DNA of 34,855 nt from Salisapilia sapeloensis (lineage: Eukaryota > Oomycota > Peronosporomycetes > Peronosporales > Salisapiliaceae), in NCBI GenBank assembly GCA_023334545.1, contig JAADVB010000206.1:1-34855 (forward strand), read 5' to 3'. The number at the start of each line of letters is the position of its first letter. Position 1 is the stretch's first letter. A program made the position numbers and the translations under genes. The notes below the pieces were generated by a model. It had not been told where the DNA came from. It ran no database searches and saw only the letters and a program-made list of their open reading frames with translations. Below are positions 1,413 to 34,855 of the stretch, piece by piece.

Positions 1413-2260
1413 TCGTGTATTTGTGCAGTGGTTTCCATGAGTATCCATCTAAAGTGAAGTAAACGATGCGTTTCTAGCGAGCATGATGTAAACATTGTTT
1501 GTGCTATCTAAATCCGATGCATCCTACACATACAAAAGTACTAGCATAGAGATCCGGAGCGTTCGCATATCCGAGGATGCTGAGGGGTGAATTGAAAGCA
1601 AGGTCGAACGCAATTCGTTTTATATGCTAAAGGAAGAAGAAGATGAGGTTCGATAGATTAAATTAGGAATAATGTTTGTACTATCAGATCATAATAATCT
1701 CAAGATAAATCTTTTATCGGATTATTCTTGTTGCGAATAAACCAAGTTACTATGAGTTTAAGAGATAGTGAATTTGGATGGCCTTGACAATGGGTCTATG
1801 GACGAAAGTCTTAGTAGAGAATGATTTTTAACTTTGTGTAGCAGAAGCTAAACTTTTTGAACGATATCAAGACAAGTGTGGGTGAGACCTTGCACTACAT
1901 ACAAGTTAAGCTTACTTGTTATTTGTTTCAAGGTGATCGTGCAGCCAGTCCAACACATAGAAACCTAGAGCAGAGTGATACTGCAATTTGAGTTTCATTT
2001 CATGCCACATTTCCATGTAAAACTTTATCATCGTACGAACTAGTAGTGACTAAGCGACTTGAGCACAAAATACAGTGATAAAAGTAGTCCAAGTGCCCAT
2101 GAACCAGAATGAAGCGCCCTTTAATACCTGGGACGACCTCCTCGAGTACTATTTTCAAGCACTTTATTTTGTCCAATCTATGTTGCATATCAGTGATTTC
2201 TACCAATGAAAAGCCTAATCTTGACAACAATGTAAAAAGTTCAAAAATCGACATTAAGTG
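1413..2260. other. Intergenic, no gene seen
   Basis: Stops are frequent in all frames and I see no splice-joined reading frame with a recognisable protein. A minus-strand open stretch at 2000-2269 lies over the 5' flank and start of the HSF gene and resembles nothing I know. This region must hold the 3' end of the CaaX protein gene and the promoter of the HSF gene. Confidence 0.5.
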
Positions 2261-3523
2261 ATGGCGCAAGGTATCGCTTCAGCCTTTGTGCGCAAGCTGT
2301 ACCGCATCCTGGACGTAGAAGACAACCAAATCATTAGCTGGGGATCGTCAGGAACTTCCTTCATTATCCACGATAGCATTAGACTCAATGCTGACATTTT
2401 ACCAAGGTATTTCCGAGGTCGCCTCGTCGCCTTTCGACAGCAGTTGATCGATCACGGATTTAAACGCATGGAAGATGGAGACGACAAGGATGCAGAGATT
2501 TATTACCATGTTGACTTTATTCAGGGTGAACCAGGTCGACTCGCTCGTATCGTACGGGCACCGACGAGCAAGAAACCAAGCCGGTCAAAATCACTTCCCG
2601 AAACGAAGCAAGACAGCTCGGATAGATTCCAACAGGCAGTCACAAGTGATTCGAACCCAGGTTCATTACGAGTTAAAATAATGACGAAGAAAGCCCATGG
2701 AAACGATACTTCATGTCGGAAGCGACCGGCGCCAGATGACAGTGAGCAGGAACAGCGCTTTCGTCCCGTTCCGATGTGCAAATCAGATCAGAGTGAGGTT
2801 GAGAATGCGCCTCCTGCACCTCCAAATCCACTTTTTACCGATGGGCCAGATGCAGATGATCCACTGTCGATTACGCACTTTTTAAAAGGCAGACAACTAC
2901 CGACAAGTACCGAGTTACCAGACCCGATTAGCTATCTAAGTAGTAACGATGGTAGGCAAGATATGGATGCAACTACTTCGTACGTAGCAGATCCGCCAAG
3001 TGTTTCGGAGAATGTCTTCCGGTCTGCGCTCCATCGTTTAATTTCAGATGCAGGAGAAGAACAGAAAGCAGCACCAGCACAAGTGTTAAATGAGGATAAA
3101 GAAGCGTCTGCATCACAGGTACTCGCCTCGCTACTTGCCTCTTCCACGTCGTATAGTAGACAAGAACCAAAGATGAATGCGACAAAAGGTGTGAATCCAC
3201 TCTTTAGTGATGCAAAAGCGGACGACGGACAGGATAGTCTATGGCATTTACTCGTGGAATCATCTGTCGGACGTGTAAAGGAAAGTATCTCCAAATTAAA
3301 GACACCACAGGAACGATTGGAAGTCGTGAAGGAAGAACGTGAACGGTTGGAAAAGCATCGAAATCAACTGGAGCAGTCGCGTCAAGGTGGGACACAAGAG
3401 TCGGACGTGACGATCCCAGATGCTGCGTACGGACAAGCGGATGATGATCAGTTATGGAGATTGCTCATGACATCGTCCGTCGACATGTTCCGTCGTGCCA
3501 CAAACCCCGATCGTCCGACCTAG
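2261..3523 (+). CDS. Heat-shock-factor-type DNA-binding protein
   Basis: Intronless gene for a 420-residue transcription factor. Residues 5-95 form an HSF-type winged-helix DNA-binding domain: FVRKLYRIL, then the ISWG...SFIIHD strand region, ILPRYF, the recognition helix region VAFRQQLIDHGFKR, and the IYYHVDFIQG wing. The canonical FxSFVRQLNxYGF is read here as LVAFRQQLIDHGF, a divergent oomycete-like form. A short charged coiled coil (TPQERLEVVKEERERLEKH) near residue 350 could mediate oligomerisation. The C-terminal half carries repeated acidic plus hydrophobic motifs (NPLF-D--ADD followed by W/F-x-LL) that look like activation motifs. I chose the ATG at 2261 because an in-frame TAA ends at 2257 and only a GTG separates them. 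It should act in the nucleus on heat-shock-element-like DNA; target genes are unknown. Confidence 0.88.
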   Translation: MAQGIASAFVRKLYRILDVEDNQIISWGSSGTSFIIHDSIRLNADILPRYFRGRLVAFRQQLIDHGFKRMEDGDDKDAEIYYHVDFIQGEPGRLARIVRAPTSKKPSRSKSLPETKQDSSDRFQQAVTSDSNPGSLRVKIMTKKAHGNDTSCRKRPAPDDSEQEQRFRPVPMCKSDQSEVENAPPAPPNPLFTDGPDADDPLSITHFLKGRQLPTSTELPDPISYLSSNDGRQDMDATTSYVADPPSVSENVFRSALHRLISDAGEEQKAAPAQVLNEDKEASASQVLASLLASSTSYSRQEPKMNATKGVNPLFSDAKADDGQDSLWHLLVESSVGRVKESISKLKTPQERLEVVKEERERLEKHRNQLEQSRQGGTQESDVTIPDAAYGQADDDQLWRLLMTSSVDMFRRATNPDRPT

Positions 3524-10914: not shown

Positions 10915-13900
10915 ATGAGCGAGGTGGGCATGGAGGACAAGCCGACAGCTTCATCAGTTGGAAAGAATGGAGAGAGTGTTTCGACAAATGGGAATGGAAG
11001 TAATAAGGAAGAAAAAAGTTGGCGGACGCAGCCTTTATTGCATTTTCGAGACCTGACGATGGCGACACAGAGTCGAAAAGCACGCTTTACATGCGTGGAT
11101 GCGTCTGAGAATTTCGTTGCATGCGGGTATTATCTTTGAATAGAATGATGATGATTCATGTACTAAGTAGCATCAACAGAACAAACAATGGGAGTGTCTA
11201 TCTTTACGCCACCTCACAGGCGAGGACAGGGCATCAAGCTAAATCCGCTCAAGCGACAGGTATCTCGACTAAATACCGTCTTGTAAAGGTGATTACACCT
11301 CCAAGTAATGACCGAGTCGGTGTCTCCTGCGTAACGATCAGTCCGAATCAAAAGCACCTAGTCGTTGGGACCTCGAGAGGTGTCGTCTATGCCCTACAGC
11401 TATCTGATTACCAAAAGATTGGAGAGAAGATTGAGTTCTCACACGACTTCCACGCCGGATTCCCCATCACTTGCTTCCTATGGGACTCCAAAGGTCATCG
11501 TCTCTTCTCCGCTTGCAACGCCGGTACAGTCTGCCAGACTGTGCTTCGTGCAGGCGTGTCTGCTTTATTCGGCAGCACAGACACCGAGTTGCTACTCAAG
11601 GAAGAGACAGGTATCGTCCAGTTAGATCTCGGCAAACAAGGCAAGCAGCATATACTTCTCGTGTCATCTCAGCTCCGCGTCCTCCTTCTTAATATGTCAT
11701 CTGGAGACGGTAGTGCCGTCCAAGTCGGTACGAAAGCCCGACAAGGTAGCTACGGTGCTTGCTTCTTCACAAATTACGATCCAGAGGCGATTGACCCGAC
11801 GAAAAAGGTTGAAGCAAAGGTCTTTTCAGCTCGACCAGGTCGTCGTGTCTGGATCGCAGATCCCATGTCTGGGAAAGTATCTTCGACACTCAAGTTTCCC
11901 GTGAACAAGCAGCCTTCTTCATTTCCGCAAGAAACCGGATGTGCCTTTGAAGGTAACGTCCAGACACGAGATCTGTCTATCAATCGCGTGTCTCTTTTCC
12001 ATTTCATTCATGAACCATACGTGTCCGAGCCACTACGCAAGCGAACGTTGTTATTGAGTTGGAGTCCTGGCTCCACTGTCTTGTTTCTCTTAGATCCGAT
12101 CGCTGTTGAGATCGTCGAGTGGCATCTCGATCTCGGTGTCATCCACGACCTAAAAGTCCTGAATGACAAGGTCTTTGTCGCACTACATGGAGAACCACCA
12201 CGTGTATCCATGGTTCAGTCTTGTACTGCGCAACAGTTCTTAGATACGTATGCTAAGGGAGATGTCCGCAAATCGGTGGAACTTGCGTTGGAATATCAAA
12301 TGAACGATGTACTTGTGCTGGAGCAATTGCAGCATCAATGGTCTAAACTAACGGAAGATCAGCCAGAGGAAGAGAAAGATGACGACGCCGAAAATATGAC
12401 AAATCACCTGGATAGTTTATTGACACATGCGAGAGAGCTAGAAGACAGACACCAGTCGGATGAGTACTCCAATGTGCACTCGATCGAGCCTCTGCAGATC
12501 GTGTACAAGCAACGTCCTCAGTCCACTGCTTCGATCGACCTTCCGTCTGTAGATGAAAGTGAAATCTCTTCGCTCCACGTCTCTCCTTCGTCTACTGACG
12601 CTGCCGTGACACTAGCCACTGGCAAACATCATTTGCACAAGCAGAATGAATACTCTGATGTCCTCGCTCCTTCCTTTACATCTTCTTCGAAAAGTATTTT
12701 GACGCCAGACGGATCGAACGTACAAGCTAGGACAGTGCAAGTACCTTTCCATACGAAAGGCGATCCGATCGTTCGAGAGGAAGACAGAGAGATGTTCATG
12801 GCGGAGATCATGGCTCGTGTAAAACACTTTGAAGAAGTGCAGGAGATGGATCAGAGCAACATGAATCGTCTGTCGTCGAGACTGAAAGATAGTCTGAATC
12901 CAGATATCGCTGCGAGAGCTTTCTCTACCTTTTTGCCTAGTACGAGTATGCTTAACAATATCATTGATACGTCCACAAGGTTTGGACGAGGACAGTTTAC
13001 TAGTGTCTTTGGCGAGACAGAAGATGTGGAGGATGACGTTCTACTAGACCCTGTGCCTCCGCATATGTACAGCTACGGATGGAAGATCGATGAGAATGGT
13101 GACGAGTACCCAGTCCTTCGAATCGCCATGTCATCGTCTGGTCAGGATAATCGAGTAGACACTGAAGTGCTGTTAGAAGCCATTGCGACAGATTTATGGG
13201 ATACACATAAGAAGTACGAGTCTTTCTTTTCGTCTGTCGAAGAGGATGAGCCAGATAACTTTGATCTGCCGGATTTATTCCAAGAGAATGAAGAGGAAGC
13301 GCTAACGACACGAGCGTCTAGTACGGCAAGTGTGATGCAAGTCAGTGTACAGGATACACATGCAAAGGACTCGAGTGAGAGTAAAAAGTCTGGGCATTAC
13401 CACTCGTCACCAGAGTACAAGAAGAATAGTCAAAATGCTTTGAAACGATATCTTCATGCTACTGCAAGTAGTGAAGTAAAGACGCAGTCGATGGTGAGTG
13501 GACAGCTAGCCACGACGCCGGATCTAGCACCTCTACTGAAACGAGACGCGAATGATCTGGCGGCGGAACTACAGTCCGCAGCGTTGACCGCGGAGAAGAC
13601 CAAGCATTTGACGCAGAGACTGTGGCCTGCAGCAGGGATCACGCGTGTATGCGCTTGCTTAACGAACCTCTTCTTGCTCCAAGGAGACATGAAGAGGGTG
13701 CTATCAACGATCGGGTCGTGGCTTAGCTGCTTCGATCCGACTGCAAGTGCTGAAGATGTTCTTAGTCAGCACAGTGACGATGCGACGGACTTGTCGAGTG
13801 ATGCATCTACGTCTGGTGGATTTGCCAAGGGTGAAGCTTTAGTAGGTGGAGACGGTCTGCCGCTGACGAGAGGCGACTGGAACCTCGTAAGAGCTCTTGT

Positions 13901-15703
13901 ATCGACGTACTTTGTCGTGTTTGCTGCAGGTGATAAGCTTCACATTCGTCCAGCACCGAAAGATGGAGTTGTAAAGACATCTCGAGGTATGGCATTTGCA
14001 GTAGAAATGGGTGCGGTGATGCACTTGGAGGAAGAGTACGACTGGAGCACTCGTGGAGAGAGGGAGAGTAGGCAAGTGTGTACGGCGGATGAAGCAGAAG
14101 AGTTTGTGAACAAGTACGGAGCGTACTTGAATCCAGAATTAGCTGCAGAAGTATGTAGTCTCCGATATTTCCCCGACGCACTGCAAAAACTGTTGGATAA
14201 TGTCATGGCGAATGCGAATATGGCAGAGATTGGCGACGACATGGTGAATAGTATAGCCGAAGGAGATGTAGCTGGTGCGATGCAGCATGTAGAAGAGAGT
14301 GAATCGTTGTGTTTGCTACTGCATCATTTGGATCTGTTGCTGAAGAAGTGTCCAGTGGAAGCAGTGGAAGTATGTTGTCATCAGTATCCTGTTGTGTATC
14401 CATGGAATGTCGAGCGATGTCTCTTTGGATCGAGGTTGACTGGTGATAAAGAGGACTGGCGTACGTTGAAGGATCCGCAACTGAAAGACCAAGTGCATAC
14501 ATACATAAGGTATCTCGTGCGTCTGTTGGAAGTGAAAGGAGAGCAAGCAGGACAAGATCGGATGGTAGTCGATCGATGTCTAAAGCTTTGCTTCTCAGAT
14601 AAACTGATTGTACGACATCTATTTGAAGAGGAAGGACGACGAGGAAAGGAAAAGTGGGTGACGTCACTTTTGGCGCAACCTGAACTCTTCCTCTTTGACC
14701 ACGAGAGTGTTTGGAAGTCATGCCATGAACATGGCATGGCGTCTGGTATGACTGAACTGATGTTGCAGTCGCTTCGAGTAGACTGTACACAAGACAGAGG
14801 AAAGAAGGAGTTGTCTCAGCTAGCTGCGTTCTACTTGAGGAAGAGAGAACTAGATATGTTGGAACGTTTGTGTCTGAAACTGACATGGACGCCCTCATGT
14901 ATCTCAGACCTGATGCGGATTGTATTGGAGAGAGTGATGGAGCATATCGATCGAGGTCTCGAGTGGGAACAGAAACTCGTGTCGAGCACATTGTTCAATG
15001 TTTTTAAGGTCCTGGAAAGCTCTCAAGCGATCGCTTTGCTGGAGGAATTTCAAGACCTTGTGAAAAGAGTTCCACTCACGCTCCTGCAGTCGATTGCACA
15101 TGCAGCTGCACTCGAAGATCGACGCAAGTCGGAAGTTCACCAGATGCTGGAAGTTGTGGATTCGAGTGTCTGGAAGTCTTATCGGGATGCAACAGGTGCG
15201 AAAGGAATGGCTCTTCCGCCGCAAGTTACTGGTGTCATGGAACTAGAAATGGGTATTAGACAGCCATCGCTAGATGATGATCAGTTTGAAGAATGGAAAG
15301 ATGTTGTGGAAGAGCAGAAGAAGTTGAGCTTGAAGGATGAAATGAGTCATGGAGGTGGTGTTGGTCAACGACGCAAGCGCTCTTCCTCGACAGAAGCAAC
15401 GCCTGGTCAATCTCTCATTAAGCGATCGTATGAATATCGTAATAGTGAGTGGGGAGGCGAAGTGGAACTTCATGACAGCACGTGTGCCTGGTGTGAGCTT
15501 CCAGTCGTTTTAATTACGCATGGTACTTTATACTTTTTATTCTTAAAAGAAAAAGAATATTTATTGATATGATACTCGTAGATAATGAAAGCATGGAGGT
15601 GGTCGTTCTGCCATGTGGACACGCATTCCATGCACTCTGCTTGCAAGATGAAAGCTGTTCCATCTGTCTAGACGCCAACTTGACGACATTGTGTACGAAT
15701 TAA
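10915..15703 (+). CDS. HPS5-like (BLOC-2 subunit type) WD40 protein with C-terminal RING-like finger
   Basis: Exons are 10915-11126, 11171-15522 and 15582-15703, giving 1561 residues; the introns are 44 and 59 bases. The N-terminal ~400 residues read as WD40-type blades (NNGSVYLYATSQ, HLVVGTSRGVVYALQL, HRLFSACNAGTV), with QGSYGACFF and ARPGRRVW matching the blades I know from HPS5/TECPR2-type proteins. An acidic low-complexity linker follows, then a long helical region (about 820-1400) of trafficking type, including a VCCHQYPVVYPWNVERCLFG block. The extreme C-terminus has a zinc finger: C1509-x2-C1512, C1533-x-H1535-x2-H1538-x2-C1541, C1547-x2-C1550, a C3H2C3 RING pattern split by the last intron. 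The likely role is endolysosomal or lysosome-related-organelle trafficking. HPS5 is my best match; TECPR2 or a VPS8-like protein is the alternative. Confidence 0.8.
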
Positions 15704-24505: not shown

Positions 24506-25411
24506 ATGAGTGGGACGATGTACATTCGCTCGGACTTTGCCGCCCTGCGTGTGCAAAAGGACATTAATGAAGTATCTAAGTTATTCTAGAGTACGAATGC
24601 AACGATTATTAATACTTGTTCTTGTGCTTATAGCTCGCAAAAGCGAAATTCACGTGTGCACAAGCGACGACGGGGATCGAGTTTCCTGATGGGATGGATA
24701 ATATGCTCCACCTCGTCTTCACAATCGCTATTGCCGACACTGCTGGTCCCTATGCCAATGGCAACTTTACTTTTTATGTGAATATCCCAAGGACATATCC
24801 CTTCCATCGTACGATCCTCTTATCATCTTCCAAAAGTACTGTACTAAAGTCTCTTGCCTATAGCTCCAAGCGTCAAGTGCCTTACAACGTAAGCTTTGCA
24901 TCTATCGAATCTGAATCAAGATACTTATCTCTCTTCTAGCGTATGGCATCCGAATGTGGATTTAAACACAGGAAAAGTAATGATGCCGATCTTGGCGAAA
25001 GACTGGCGACCCGTCCTGAGCATTAACACGGTCCTCCTTGGTCTCCAGGTACGTCTATCACCCACAGAATCCATCACACGGTAACTAACGTCGGTACAGT
25101 TAATCTTTGTCGAGCCAGGTATCGACTACGTTTTGAATCCGACGGCGGCGGAGCAATTGCAGGCAGACCCGGACCAGTTCAGACACATGATGCAGCAGAT
25201 GCTGCGTGGTGGAAGGTTCTACGACAAAGATTTTCCTCCACATCCTCGGCAATTGGAACGTTTGAAAACGACTGCGCTGTGCAAGCGTCGGCGTGAAGAT
25301 GAGCCGACGATTGAATCTGTTTCGGAGCAATCGATGGACGAGTGCATGGCATGGCACGCCGAGCCCGTGACGACAATGCCCATGTACAAACGTGCGAGAC
25401 ACTTGGAGTAG
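24506..25411 (+). CDS. UBC12 (NEDD8 E2)-like protein lacking the catalytic cysteine
   Basis: Exons are 24506-24571, 24634-24808, 24864-24888 (25 bases), 24940-25048 and 25100-25411, giving 228 residues. The UBC fold matches UBE2M/Ubc12: RVQKDINEL, NGNFTFYVNIPRTYPFHPPSV, KCLTTVWHPNVDL, DWRPVLSINTVLLGLQLIFVEP, then a helix ending MLRGGRF (compare the MRGG segment of Ubc12). HPN is intact at residues 92-94, but where E2s have G-x-V/I-C the sequence is G100-K-V-M103-M-P-I-L, so the active-site Cys is Met. It therefore cannot form a ubiquitin or NEDD8 thioester by the usual route and should be a UEV-type non-catalytic E2. The Ubc12 N-terminal extension is missing. A C-terminal tail of about 60 residues has basic patches (CKRRRED, YKRARHLE), perhaps nuclear signals. 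Confidence 0.88.
24864..24888 (+). other. 25-base microexon in the UBC12-like gene
   Basis: It is flanked by TAG on the left and GTAAGC on the right and encodes the P-S-V-K-C-L-T segment that joins YPFHP to TVWHPN, exactly the residues expected between these blocks in an E2. Skipping it would change frame and remove a core strand. Confidence 0.8.
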
Positions 25412-26058: not shown

Positions 26059-26451
26059 ATGGGTATTCGACCGCAATTTAAAATCGGTGCTTTCCACTTG
26101 CACCAACAAGCTTCTGCGAATGGCGGACATGCTGTGCTGAAGAAGAAGACAAAGTATGTACCACAACTACTGACATCCGAGTCTACGCCCATGGAGCGGG
26201 AAGTTGCGGATGTCAAGGCCAAAGTGTTGCAAAACTACCCGCACAAGCAAATGCGCTTCAGTGTGAGCCACATGTGCCGTGTCGGTGCCCCGATCCGCGC
26301 ACCAAGCGATGTCAGCTGGAACGTCGTGCCGCGCACGGTCGTCAGCGGCAAGGCTGTCCCATTTACGCTGGCAAAGCACAAGTATCGCCGACGAAAGATG
26401 GTCAAGTTCCTCGCACGTATTGAAGAAGAACGACTTCGACCGGTCATGTAG
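26059..26451 (+). CDS. Small basic protein, function unknown
   Basis: A single-exon 130-residue frame starting MGIRPQFKIGAFHLHQQ and ending KFLARIEEERLRPVM. It is strongly basic (KYRRRKMVKF near the end) with His and Lys spread through, and has no transmembrane segment or zinc motif. Size and charge would suit an organellar ribosomal or nucleic-acid-binding protein, but I recognise no family. It is better supported than neighbouring open frames because of its even, soluble-protein-like composition; a minus-strand frame overlaps it (26167-26610) and is less convincing. An upstream open stretch from 25922 is out of frame with it. Confidence 0.6.
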   Translation: MGIRPQFKIGAFHLHQQASANGGHAVLKKKTKYVPQLLTSESTPMEREVADVKAKVLQNYPHKQMRFSVSHMCRVGAPIRAPSDVSWNVVPRTVVSGKAVPFTLAKHKYRRRKMVKFLARIEEERLRPVM

Positions 26452-26942: not shown

Positions 26943-27698
26943 ATGCAGGAGCAGGAGCACGAAACGAGGAGCTCGATCGAGCAATTGCAAAATGATGCTC
27001 AATCTGTGCCTCCAGTCGTTGACCTCATTCGCCAAGAAGCAGATCTTTTCCGTCGATTGATGTACAAAAATCATAATCAGCATCGACGAGCTCCGTACTA
27101 TCACAGTTTGCAGCTTGTGAAACGATGCTTGCGTGATCTACCGCTAAAGCAAGTTCGGTCTGCGTTTATTGAAGCAAATTCACTGCTGACAGACTTGACG
27201 GTCGAAGAGGGAATGCATCATATCTCTTGGAAACGCTTATCCACCGACCTTGTCACCAAAACGGACTCTGTATTAAAGCATTTGGTCTCCATATCCTTAC
27301 AAGCGACCGAGGTAATCCCTTCTCTATATATACTACCATTGCTTTTGTTCATATAGCTTTGCTGTAGATCATCCAAGCGATAAGAAAGGCTTATAAAGGT
27401 ATATATTACGTGTAAGTCAACTAAACTTTTACTTACCTCTTGCGTACGACTAGGCTTGGTCTCTCAATTCGCTCAGACATACTTTATGCCGTTCACTCTA
27501 ATGATGAATGCTATCTTGGCTCGACTCAAGACACTATTCCAGAACATCCTGGTCCTTTCGATTGAACTACATGGTGGTATCAGTCTCCTCTACCTCCATG
27601 AAGTCACCAAGTCCAATCCACTACGTGCCAAAGTCACATCTACTCAACTACAAGGATACCAGCTACCTGCAATAGTTCTTACGATAGCGAATACATAG
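26943..27698 (+). CDS. NEPRO/RMP1-like nucleolar protein
   Basis: Exons are 26943-27311, 27368-27398 (31 bases) and 27454-27698, giving 214 residues; introns are 56 and 55 bases. The core signature is LFRRLMYKNHNQHRRAPYY, the Y-x-N-x-N-x-x-R-R element found in the nucleolus and neural progenitor protein (NEPRO) and in RNase MRP subunit RMP1. The spliced KAYKGLVSQFAQTYFMPF and the helical ILARLKTLFQNIL fit the membrane-like helical region after it in NEPRO. Probable role is pre-rRNA or RNase MRP/P-related RNA processing in the nucleolus; that follows from family only. The C-terminus (from about KVTSTQLQGYQLP) is not conserved to my eye. Its 3' end is convergent with the zinc-knuckle gene. Confidence 0.65.
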
Positions 27699-30720: not shown

Positions 30721-31536
30721 TTACTTTTCTACATCCTGAAGATGGTTGTCAAACGGGGCTTGTGCCATGGATGCTGGCATCTTCCAGGCTGGAAAACGCA
30801 TGCCAGCATCAAGACGGACGTCGGTACCGTTGATGTACGGGCTCTCTAAAATCTGCTGAGCTAGTACGGCGTAGTCATTGACTTGACCTATGCGATATGG
30901 GAACGCAAGCGAGTCCTTTAGTACATCTGGAACCTCGTCTAGTGGAGACATTGGCGTGTTGAAAGAGCCTGGACTGATGGATACGACCCGAATTCCATAG
31001 ACTGCAAGGTCTCTTGCCATGGGGAGAGACATACCCAGGACGCCGGCTTTCGAAGCACAGTAAGCGGAGAGAAAACCAGGTCCGTCGTGTGCTGCTGTTG
31101 AACCAGTGTTGATAATGACACCACGTTCGCCTTCAGAATTTGGCTCGCCTTTCGACATTCGTTCGGCACCTAGACGACAGGTATTAAACGTGCCGAACAA
31201 GTTGACTTCACATAGACGTTTAAAGTCTTCATACGGATATGCTCCAGCAGGGCTTACAACCGGCATACGGCTTTCAATCCCAGCGCAATTCACAAGTACG
31301 TTAATAGGCTTCCCAAAAGCTTTTTCAGCTTCATTTAAGGCCTTGATAACGTCTTCTTCGTTGGCCACGTCTCCACAAACAAAGATAGCATTGCTCCCAA
31401 TTTCTTTCGCGACATCCTCTCCATTGTTGGAAAGATCAAAGATGACTACTTTGGCACCCTGCTTACCAAAACGCATTGCGGTCTCTTTTCCCATGCCAGA
31501 GGCACCGCCGGTAATCATAGCCACTTTCGCTTCCAT
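30721..31536 (-). CDS. Short-chain dehydrogenase/reductase, HSD17B10-like (copy A)
   Basis: A single-exon 271-residue NAD(P)-dependent oxidoreductase. It has the Rossmann motif TGGASGMG near residue 10, an acidic residue after the second strand (VVIFDLS) that favours NAD, NCAG in strand 4, a catalytic Ser in INTGSTAA, and Y-x3-K in SAYCASKAG. The PFDNHLQDVEK tail is shared with copy B. Overall it resembles 3-hydroxyacyl-CoA dehydrogenase type 2 (HSD17B10), mitochondrial in animals; no presequence is evident here. Whether it works in fatty-acid or branched-chain amino-acid breakdown (as the enoyl-CoA hydratase in this window would) is inference only. It lies in tandem with copy B, same strand, about 750 bases apart. 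Confidence 0.93.
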   Translation of the reverse strand: MEAKVAMITGGASGMGKETAMRFGKQGAKVVIFDLSNNGEDVAKEIGSNAIFVCGDVANEEDVIKALNEAEKAFGKPINVLVNCAGIESRMPVVSPAGAYPYEDFKRLCEVNLFGTFNTCRLGAERMSKGEPNSEGERGVIINTGSTAAHDGPGFLSAYCASKAGVLGMSLPMARDLAVYGIRVVSISPGSFNTPMSPLDEVPDVLKDSLAFPYRIGQVNDYAVLAQQILESPYINGTDVRLDAGMRFPAWKMPASMAQAPFDNHLQDVEK

Positions 31537-32286: not shown

Positions 32287-33105
32287 TTACTCATCTATGT
32301 CCTGAAGATGATTATCAAATGGAGCTTCTGCCATGGAAGCTGGCATTTTCCATGCTGGAAAACGTGTACCAGCGTCAAGACGAATGTCAGTACCATTGAT
32401 GTATGGGCTTTCCAGAATCTGTTGCGCCAGTAAAGCGTAGTCACTGACTTGGCCGATGCGAAACGGAAATGCAATTGCATCCTTCAGTACGTCTGGAACT
32501 TCATCAAGTGGCACCATCGGCGTATTCACGGTGCTTGGGCTTATGGATACGACTCGAATTCCATAGACTGCAAGATCCCTCGCCATCGGGAGGGACATTC
32601 CTAGCACACCGGCTTTTGAGGCCGAATAGCCTGATATAAACCCAGGTCCATCGTGTGCCGCTGCCGAGGCAGTGTTTATGATAACACCACGTTCGCCTTC
32701 AGAATTTGGCTCGCCTTTCGACATTCGTTCCGCGCCCAAGCGACAAGTATTAAACGTGCCGAACAAGTTGACTTCACATAGACGTTTGAAGTCGTCGTAG
32801 GGGTATGGCCCCGCTGGAGTTACAAGTGGCATACGACTTTCAATCCCAGCGCAATTCACAAGTACGTTAATAGGCTTCCCAAAAGCTTTTTCAGCTTCGT
32901 CCAATGCCTTGGTAACGTCGTCTTCTTTGCTTACATCGCCACAGACAAAGATGGCATTCTTTCCTATGTCACGTGCGACTTCCTCGCCAGTGCTAGAAAG
33001 ATCAAAGATAATCACTCTGGCACCCTGCTTACCAAAACGCATTGCGGTCTCTTTTCCCATGCCAGAGGCACCACCGGTAATCATAGCCACTTTCTTTTCC
33101 ATCAT
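32287..33105 (-). CDS. Short-chain dehydrogenase/reductase, HSD17B10-like (copy B)
   Basis: Paralogue of copy A, single exon, 272 residues from the first ATG (33105) or 271 from the second (33102), which aligns with the start of copy A. The same active-site features are present: TGGASGMG, VIIFDLS, NCAG, Ser in INTASAAA, and Y-x3-K in SGYSASKAG. Differences are concentrated at SPAG/TPAG, around the Ser (TGST against TASA) and in the substrate-loop region after SISP (GSFNTPMS against STVNTPMV), so substrate preference could differ. Long stretches are identical to copy A at the DNA level, including synonymous sites. The frame reads further upstream to a TTG, which I do not use. Confidence 0.92.
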   Translation of the reverse strand: MMEKKVAMITGGASGMGKETAMRFGKQGARVIIFDLSSTGEEVARDIGKNAIFVCGDVSKEDDVTKALDEAEKAFGKPINVLVNCAGIESRMPLVTPAGPYPYDDFKRLCEVNLFGTFNTCRLGAERMSKGEPNSEGERGVIINTASAAAHDGPGFISGYSASKAGVLGMSLPMARDLAVYGIRVVSISPSTVNTPMVPLDEVPDVLKDAIAFPFRIGQVSDYALLAQQILESPYINGTDIRLDAGTRFPAWKMPASMAEAPFDNHLQDIDE

Positions 33106-34855
33106 GTTTCCTCCCTTACGAAGACCCAAAGAAACTTGACGAGTGAGCAAGTTGTAAAGGGGAGAAAGAGTTCAGAGGATGTGCATAGAAGAAATTGATG
33201 TTCGAACAAATAGATCCTTACAAGAGTACAACAGCACTTCAAGCTAAGTCATGAGTTGGGTACACGAGAAATCGGGGGTACATAAGAAGAGCTAAACCAA
33301 AGCACAAGCGTAATTGCTTGAAGGATATCCATAAACAGAGCTGCCTCGTATTCGCTAGGCAGGAAGCTTCTTTATCTCAGTCGCCAAATGGACCTCGCTT
33401 ATCTTGTGGTACTGGACTGCTACATCGCCAAGGTGGGTCTTACACTCGTTGGATCTTAGTATACTATCCTTTGACACTTTTAGAACTCGAATTGGTTGAT
33501 TGACCTGAGGAACAAAATACCTAAGCTAGTAGTCTATATAACTGCAGTGGTTTTCAGCTTACTCTTACATGCCCAACGGATAGACCAACTCGTTTTGTCC
33601 ATGTTGACCTTAAACAAGAAATGTTGCTATATAAGCTTCTACATCTTAATCATCTTAGCGCGCGGTATACTGTGCTTCAGGGGCTGACTCCGCTTCCTTT
33701 TATGCTGCGCTCCTCAATGCAGATATAATAGAATTGCTCACAAAGCCAGCACGGGTACTGTGCGTGGACGGTTTTACGCCAGTCAGTGTATCTAAAAGGT
33801 CATATCACTGTTCACTTGGTGTGGATACTGCTCTTTAATTATCTTTTTCACGGCTATGGCCGTCGCGATGGTTTTTGCTTCGAACCTGCGCCTAGAATCT
33901 CGTTTCCTGGATGGTGAGGAGGTATACAGCAGTGCCGATGAGCTCCAAGAGCAAATACTACAGACAAGATGCCAAGTAATTGCACGAAGCATACATCTAT
34001 TGCAATTATGGTTCGTGTTCACCAATCCTGAATTAACAGAGGAAGGATAAATGAATATCCTTATACTTATACAAGAAAGTGTTCTATTAGCAAGAGTTCT
34101 GTTTCTGCTTTGATGTTATCTTTCATGCGTACCCCGGCTTTGTCAGTATCTCTGCAAGTTTCGGGTGTAGATGGACGTGAAATCTTGATACTGACTAAAC
34201 TTTTGAATTAGCTGTCTTTGTGTGATGTGCGTCAACGTATTGATAGAAAGCAGAAAACTACTTTGCTCTCTAGCGTCCTCTGAGCATGCCTACGGCTACG
34301 CTGGATGAAGATTGTTTCGTAGTCGCATGAAAGCCTTATTTGCTTGTTCGCTAATTATTCATAGCAAATAGAGTCTAGATCAATTATAACACTGAAATGA
34401 TTCAAACCGTCGTTTAGGTAACCAAGTACCATGCGTTCCGTGGATCTAAGCAGACGTAGTGCAACGTTTCGGGACCTAGTGTCACGGAGCCAAGCCATAT
34501 CTGCTGTATTTCCTTTCGTATCTTTCGACCCCTCTGTGTTAGAGGTACATGTCTACTTCGAGCATTGACCCCATACAAAAGAGCTTCAGAGTATACACGA
34601 TACACGACTTCCAAAGTGTAGGTTGGTGATACTTTATAAAGTACGGAAGCAAACACTGGAAGTAGTCATTATTTAATTTATATGTTAGGCCGTGCACGCT
34701 CTAAATACTGATTCGGCATGATTGGGGATTCACCTTTCGTTATTCTATTCATACAAGTTGAATCGGGCAATTTCGCGTTCGTTGAGAATAGCCGACTGTG
34801 TTTGCCACTTGTCATTAAAAACCTAACGCAACACTTCAATATAGCTTTCCCGCTA
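33106..34855. other. Gene-poor right end, possible decayed retroelement
   Basis: No intact gene. The plus strand at about 33335-33500 reads SYSLGRKLLYLSRQMDLAYL then, after a frame change, SYTRWILVYYPL. This loosely recalls the reverse-transcriptase to RNase H junction of Ty1/copia polyproteins. Further short open segments (33496-33687, 33856-34050 plus; 34414-34656 minus) are not recognised. The dispersed repeat copy 2 lies at the far end. Several frameshifts and stops make any former gene inactive. The copia assignment is tentative. Confidence 0.3.
34704..34803 (-). repeat. Dispersed repeat, copy 2
   Basis: Gap-free partner of 8522-8621, about 75% identical. On the minus strand it encodes RLFSTNAKLPD and RITKGESPIMPNQY and continues open to a stop near 34680. 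The window ends before its upstream limit. Confidence 0.8.

What the first reader, a model, noticed from the sequence alone, without database searches (positions are those of the whole stretch)
24506..25411. UBC12-like E2 with Met in place of the catalytic cysteine
The spliced protein follows UBE2M/Ubc12 along the core (INEL, HPNVDL, DWRPVLSIN, LRGG), keeps HPN, but has G-K-V-M-M-P where the active-site Cys belongs. Known UEVs resemble Ubc13-partner or Tsg101 types, so a UEV derived from the NEDD8 E2 would be a distinct class. It also loses the N-terminal tail that binds the NEDD8 E1 and gains a basic C-terminal tail. It might be a pseudo-E2 that regulates cullin neddylation or acts in the nucleus.
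Basis: partly seen in the sequence, partly recalled or inferred. Interest (0 to 1): 0.8.

Follow-up and report, generated by a model that had tools for sequence, protein, structure and literature searches.

The report
Ancient dead NEDD8 E2 in stramenopiles
This water-mould gene encodes a protein shaped like the enzyme that attaches the ubiquitin-like tag NEDD8 but without its active-site cysteine, and relatives in brown algae and other stramenopiles lack the cysteine too, so it is probably an old non-catalytic regulator that databases sometimes name as a working NEDD8 enzyme.

Summary
Five exons (24506-25411, +) encode a 228-aa UBC-fold protein whose nearest solved relative is UBE2M/Ubc12. It keeps HPN but has Met103 (24980-24982) at the catalytic Cys position. 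This is no sequencing error: all 30 named-oomycete relatives with a readable site have Met. The same genome holds a separate, ordinary Ubc12 with Cys and docking tail. The family also reaches Albugo, brown algae, Aureococcus and unnamed transcriptome/metagenome proteins, where the site varies among 14 residues but is Cys in none of the 76 readable members. On trees built without that column the sampled members form one clade (100/99), grouped with Ubc12 and UBE2F against eleven other E2s (100/97). Cys111, Asn113, Arg116 and Asp143 of the catalytic groove are gone, while helix 1 and the second E3-type loop are tighter than in true Ubc12. A tail with KRxR motifs suggests nuclear location. Best reading: an ancient Ubc12-type pseudo-E2, probably a non-catalytic adaptor or competitor at E3s. 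Identity is well supported; function is inferred. It is a new variant of a known kind (pseudo-E2/UEV). The host is an oomycete, probably not Albugo.

The parts
24506..24571 (+). exon 1 (MSGTMYIRSDFAALRVQKDINE), helix 1 of the UBC fold; orthologues suggest that translation may start at the ATG at 24518
24634..24808 (+). exon 2, first strands of the UBC fold
   Evidence: model of orthologue P0005
24864..24888 (+). exon 3, 25-nt micro-exon (P)PSVKCLT(T)
   Evidence: GT..AG borders; same residues in place in 26 of 39 relatives
24940..25048 (+). exon 4 with HPN, the catalytic position and DWRPVLSIN
24947..24955 (+). HPN motif (aa 92-94)
   Evidence: HP 30 of 30, N 27 of 30 pseudo rows
24980..24982 (+). 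ATG (Met103) at the position of the catalytic Cys (Cys111 of UBE2M)
25100..25411 (+). exon 5: C-terminal helices, LRGG, basic/acidic tail, stop
25283..25294 (+). first KRxR motif (KRRR), nuclear-localisation-like
25388..25399 (+). second KRxR motif (KRAR) at the C terminus
27000..27140 (+). NEPRO_N-like stretch (23.5 bits, just under the Pfam cut-off); P. cactorum gene models P0019 and P0218 hold this domain and the pseudo-E2 in one protein, so the order looks conserved

Best explanation
The gene encodes an ancient pseudo-E2: a paralogue of the NEDD8-conjugating enzyme Ubc12 without the catalytic cysteine, residues of the catalytic groove and the NEDD8-E1 docking tail. Shown: UBC fold, nearest kin Ubc12, one clade without Cys that holds oomycetes, brown algae and Aureococcus, lost catalytic-groove residues, a separate intact Ubc12 in the same genome. 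Inferred by parsimony: Cys was lost once, before oomycetes and ochrophytes separated. Inferred: it cannot carry NEDD8 or ubiquitin as a thioester. Inferred with less support: it works in the nucleus as a non-catalytic E2 look-alike that uses its conserved helix 1 and E3-type loops (YPF..P and DWRPVLSIN) to sit on a RING E3, or on an E1 ubiquitin-fold domain, and so scaffolds or competes with a true E2. The confidence is for the whole statement; the identity part alone I would put at about 0.93 and the E3-adaptor mechanism at about 0.4.
Against: No biochemistry, interaction, localisation or expression data for this gene. W, P and YP..P are structural in most E2s, so their conservation is weak evidence for E3 binding; the first E3-type loop (0.82 against 0.63) and HPN (0.19 against 0.00) are looser than in Ubc12, and the two row sets differ in breadth. 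The exact branching is unsettled: AU tests do not reject pseudo as sister of UBE2F (p 0.61), outside all canonical Ubc12 (p 0.73), with stramenopile Ubc12 (p 0.12), or with Ubc9 (p 0.33 with one Ubc9, 0.076 with three). The sorting rows into family and canonical used the site motif itself, so '0 of 76' is partly by construction; the independent point is that the clade holds without that column. KRxR motifs had no chance control.
Confidence: 0.6

Rival explanations
1. UEV-like partner: the protein pairs with a catalytic E2 (Ubc12 or a ubiquitin E2) and tunes its activity or linkage, as Mms2 does for Ubc13 or COP10 for its E2s (both recalled).
For: Dead E2 with a well kept fold and helix 1; an intact Ubc12 is present in the same genome.
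Against: Unlike Mms2-type UEVs it keeps HPN (27 of 30 rows) and, in the model, the C-terminal helices; no partner surface was tested.
Confidence: 0.25
2. The E2 fold has been taken over for a task outside ubiquitin-like conjugation, for example as a structural subunit of a nuclear complex, with the long tail as the working part (compare AKTIP, recalled).
For: Two or more KRxR motifs in 40 of 60 long tails and, in a minority, an LExMxI-like motif (14 of 60); free drift of the catalytic site.
Against: Helix 1 and the second E3-type loop stay very conserved, which is more than a fold-only role would seem to need.
Confidence: 0.25
3. An active but odd NEDD8 or ubiquitin E2 that uses another nucleophile or another Cys.
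For: Names in databases call members NEDD8-conjugating enzyme ube2f, NEDD8 transferase or E2 M.
Against: Fourteen different residues at the site, loss of N113, R116 and D143, no docking tail.
Confidence: 0.04
4. Pseudogene, sequencing error or wrong splicing that hides a Cys.
For: Short micro-exon; some public gene models lose or garble this region (P0017, P0018, P0019, P0028).
Against: Open frame, GT..AG borders, same residue in 30 of 30 named oomycetes, relatives with transcript names P0031 and P0176 (MMETSP).
Confidence: 0.02

Closest known systems
Ubc12 / UBE2M (NEDD8 E2)
   Same: UBC fold, highest sequence and fold match, helix 1 LR(I/V)xKDxxEL, HPN, DW(K/R)PVL, and in the model two short C-terminal strands as reported for UBE2M (PMC8028724 passages)
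   Different: no catalytic Cys, N113, R116 or D143; no 26-residue docking peptide; one more residue between HPN and the site; Phe at position 88 of the first E3-type loop (30 of 30 against 2 of 24, mostly His); long basic/acidic tail
UBE2F (second NEDD8 E2)
   Same: neighbour in the tree; sister relation not rejected (p 0.61)
   Different: UBE2F has a loop inserted after its Cys and a C-terminal helix instead of two strands (PMC8028724 passages); the insert is absent here and the model has two strands, followed by a further helix; lower score (85 against 147 bits)
UEV proteins (Mms2/UBE2V, Tsg101)
   Same: E2 fold without catalytic Cys
   Different: Leishmania UEV1 and the UEVs aligned with it also lack HPN (PMC7647121 passages); here HPN is kept; kinship is to Ubc12
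COP10 and AKTIP/FTS (recalled, not compared here)
   Same: pseudo-E2s outside the Mms2/Tsg101 types; COP10 also looks like a dead version of a true E2
   Different: COP10 derives from UBE2D/E-type ubiquitin E2s (recalled); no case derived from the NEDD8 E2 was met in the search listings

Membership tests
NEDD8-conjugating enzyme Ubc12/UBE2M | UBC fold with Ubc12 as nearest solved relative | tested here: met
NEDD8-conjugating enzyme Ubc12/UBE2M | catalytic cysteine | tested here: not met
   Met103; 0 of 76 readable family members against 120 of 120 listed canonical proteins
NEDD8-conjugating enzyme Ubc12/UBE2M | N-terminal docking peptide for NEDD8 E1 | tested here: not met
   13 residues before LRVQKD in the window protein; exactly 9 in 35 and at most 15 in 46 of 58 relatives with a recognisable helix 1; canonical Ubc12 of the same genome has the tail
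NEDD8-conjugating enzyme Ubc12/UBE2M | acidic residue at D143 (catalytic-site acid; role recalled) | tested here: not met
   D in 23 of 24 canonical rows (E in 1); D in 0 of 28 pseudo rows with a letter, E in 2; Tyr135 in the window protein
NEDD8-conjugating enzyme Ubc12/UBE2M | forms a thioester with NEDD8 | not testable with these tools
   needs a biochemical assay
UBE2F | loop inserted after the catalytic Cys and C-terminal helix in place of two strands | tested here: not met
   no insert in the alignment; model strands 159-161 and 164-166, with a further helix 170-181 after them; feature from PMC8028724
pseudo-E2 / UEV in the wide sense | UBC fold without catalytic Cys | tested here: met
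UEV of Mms2/UBE2V type | HPN missing as well | tested here: not met
   HPN in the window gene; N in 27 of 30 rows
UEV of Mms2/UBE2V type | binds a Ubc13-type E2 | not tested
   no complex prediction available
Ubc9 (SUMO E2) | groups with Ubc9 in a tree | tested here: inconclusive
   not grouped in the best trees; AU p 0.33 with one Ubc9, 0.076 with three

The most novel reading that the evidence does not exclude
Stramenopiles own a further class of UEV, born from the NEDD8 E2: a nuclear, catalytically dead Ubc12 that occupies cullin-RING (RBX-type) or other RING E3s and sets how much neddylation or ubiquitylation they perform, kept in oomycetes, brown algae and pelagophytes since their common ancestor.
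Probability: 0.25. Interest if true: 0.75.

Novelty: new variant of a known kind. Interest (0 to 1): 0.57.

Why it matters
The pseudo-E2s known to me come from ubiquitin E2 lineages; one that grew out of the NEDD8 branch and was kept in oomycetes and ochrophytes points to a layer of E3 or cullin control not described in model organisms (as far as I recall). It also corrects names: members are labelled in public data as NEDD8-conjugating enzyme ube2f, NEDD8 transferase or E2 M, although those with a readable site have no catalytic Cys. The family gives a natural test of which E2 surfaces matter without catalysis.

Tried and rejected
Sequencing error or splice artefact: rejected by orthologues. 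Met as a functional replacement for Cys: rejected, because the site drifts among many residues outside the named oomycetes. UBE2K kinship, suggested by the equal HPN-to-site spacing: AU p 0.0225, lower bits. NCBIfam names: none matched for 4 of 4 family members tried. tRNA and Rfam scans of the window: none. The PDB profile with A3 was set aside because A3 contains canonical Ubc12 rows. Foldseek and VIA lists show no UEV among the 50 printed rows each; this absence proves nothing. Ten paper searches ran; one search failed on a short term. Only search listings were seen, except passages of PMC7647121, PMC12007708, PMC3012696 and PMC8028724. No paper on this family was met there; the library is limited to open licences and listings were capped.

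Rows dropped or chosen: family = 81 proteins besides the window protein (39, 42 picked by me from the 120 listed of 177, using the site motif printed); 5 of 81 gave no readable site. The trees used the window protein with 29 and 26 of these, and 24 and 25 canonical rows, of which some were picked and some. The second tree left out P0164, P0185 and P0190 as truncated or oddly aligned.

Full report
Observation. The window gene reads as five exons (24506-24571, 24634-24808, 24864-24888, 24940-25048, 25100-25411) with GT..AG introns, 228 aa. Many orthologues start at MYMRSD, so the ATG at 24518 may be the true start. Pfam finds one UQ_con domain, aa 15-158. The best solved relative is UBE2M, E 7.4e-31; HPN aligns with HPN, and Met103 (24980-24982) lies where the catalytic Cys is.

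Same genome. The genome (19.5 Mb, 452 contigs) holds a normal Ubc12 on contig C312: six exons, 205 aa, N-terminal MLRLKKKQEEK tail, GNVCLNILREDW with Cys. A search with the window protein found places at 77% identity or more only on the window contig; the best elsewhere is 46%, so the pseudo gene looks single-copy in this assembly. A UBA3-type E2-binding domain and two DCN1-type domains are present, so these parts of a neddylation pathway exist.

Which organism. Over the full length the own Ubc12 is 71% identical to A. candida and A. laibachii, which are 88% identical to each other. In the core it is 81-82% identical to Albugo, Phytophthora, Globisporangium and Saprolegnia alike. In the Ubc12 part of the trees it stands outside a group of Albugo, Phytophthora and Globisporangium (96/86, 100/83). 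The window pseudo-E2 is 71-75% identical in the core to Phytophthora, Globisporangium and Pythium, 66% to Albugo, 62% to Aphanomyces and 58% to Achlya; in the pseudo part of the trees Albugo stands outside the window's group, with mixed support (97/53, 99/49). The two genes thus disagree on the exact place. The organism is an oomycete, and probably not Albugo.

Family. The first search gave 39 relatives; where a species name is given it is an oomycete. A profile of seven of them gave 177, of which 120 were listed: these add Albugo candida, Ectocarpus, Pylaiella, Hapterophycus, Aureococcus and many unnamed sequences, then ordinary Ubc12s. I counted 81 as family. Of these, 76 have a readable site: Met in 30 of 30 named oomycetes; among 46 others S 14, M 7, R 6, Q 3, H 3, Y 3, D 2, L 2 and one each of A, K, E, G, T, I; Cys in none. 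In the listing of canonical Ubc12 (120 of 3944 matches), 120 of 120 have Cys. The split rows used the site motif, so the zero is partly by construction. The independent test is the tree with that column removed: 30 pseudo rows (the window protein among them) form one clade (100/99) against 24 Ubc12 rows and 6 other E2s, and 27 rows do so again with more outgroups.

What was lost and kept. Over 138 core positions, the pseudo rows vary more than Ubc12 (mean entropy 1.50 against 1.25 bits). The Cys site is the 5th most variable (3.20 bits). Of 27 positions invariant in the Ubc12 rows, C111, N113 and R116 are kept in 0 of 30 pseudo rows and P144 and L145 in 6 of 30; D143 is D in 23 of 24 Ubc12 rows and in 0 of 28 pseudo rows with a letter. 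Against this background helix 1 (0.90 against 1.11) and the second E3-type loop WxPVLxIN (0.54 against 0.80) are tighter than in Ubc12. The first E3-type loop (0.82 against 0.63) and HPN (0.19 against 0.00) are slightly looser, which counts against a simple claim that all E3-type surfaces are more constrained; the two sets also differ in taxonomic breadth. Position 88 of UBE2M, where UbcH5 has its RING-contacting Phe (recalled), is Phe in 30 of 30 pseudo rows and in 2 of 24 Ubc12 rows. The NEDD8-E1 docking tail described for UBE2M (PMC8028724 passages) is missing: exactly 9 residues precede the helix in 35 of 58 relatives with a recognisable helix, at most 15 in 46; the rest have longer starts, which were not compared with the docking peptide. 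[quoted passage not shown] the helix is kept, while the beta1-beta2 loop is looser than in Ubc12 (1.75 against 1.55).

Tail. Of 60 tails that run at least 60 aa past the core (82 rows looked at), 52 have at least one [KR]Rx[KR] and 40 have two or more; 14 have an LExMxI-like motif, seen in brown algae, Saprolegniales and unnamed relatives. No chance control was run, so nuclear location is a prediction.

Mechanism. Shown: fold, kinship, missing Cys and catalytic-groove residues, wide conservation. Inferred: no thioester formation. Most likely role, still inference: a nuclear E2 look-alike that binds an E3 (or an E1 ubiquitin-fold domain) through helix 1 and the E3-type loops and scaffolds or competes. 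Rivals are a UEV-like partner of a true E2, and a structural role outside conjugation.

Known or new. Pseudo-E2s are a known kind. In the ten searches of an open-licence library (listings only, passages of four papers) I met none that derives from the NEDD8 E2 and no paper on this family. I rate it a new variant of a known kind.

Noticed in passing
window 27000-27140 (+): NEPRO_N-like stretch (PF14780, 23.5 bits, slightly under the cut-off) downstream of the pseudo-E2; two P. cactorum gene models (P0019, P0218) run the pseudo-E2 and NEPRO_N together, so the gene order is probably conserved and those models are probably false fusions.
   Followed up: partly
P0021, P0029, P0172, P0186, P0169: Public names such as NEDD8-conjugating enzyme ube2f, NEDD8 transferase or E2 M are attached to proteins of this family; the members with a readable site have no catalytic Cys (P0029 has no readable site).
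   Followed up: partly
family tails, e.g. P0161, P0031, P0169, P0026: A short LExMxI-like motif follows the first KRxR (or KR-rich) stretch in brown algae, Saprolegniales and unnamed relatives but the pattern was not found in the Phytophthora, Pythium or downy mildew tails; no known motif was assigned.
   Followed up: partly
P0180-P0182 (unnamed metagenome proteins): P0180 and P0181 form the first branch of the pseudo-E2 clade as drawn; all three have Tyr at the Cys site. Organism unknown, so the family may be older than stramenopiles.
   Followed up: no
own_canonUbc12 against win_pseudo in the trees: The two E2 genes of this genome give different places for the organism among oomycetes (Ubc12: outside Albugo + Phytophthora + Globisporangium; pseudo-E2: with Phytophthora, Globisporangium and Pythium, Albugo outside).
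   Followed up: partly
G000:C338:322-657 and G000:C235:92937-93269: Two DCN1-type cullin-binding domains in this genome.
   Followed up: no
window 30721-31536 (-) and 32287-33150 (-): Two neighbouring short-chain dehydrogenase genes (PF00106) in the same orientation, possibly a tandem pair.
   Followed up: no
window 26059-26451 (+): Small open frame of 130 aa just downstream of the pseudo-E2 with no Pfam match.
   Followed up: partly
window 11121-15572 (+) and 2258-3523 (+): HPS5-type beta propeller protein and an HSF-type DNA-binding protein.
   Followed up: no
P0017, P0018, P0019, P0025, P0028: Public gene models of other oomycetes lose or garble the PxVxCLTR segment that the micro-exon encodes here.
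   Followed up: no
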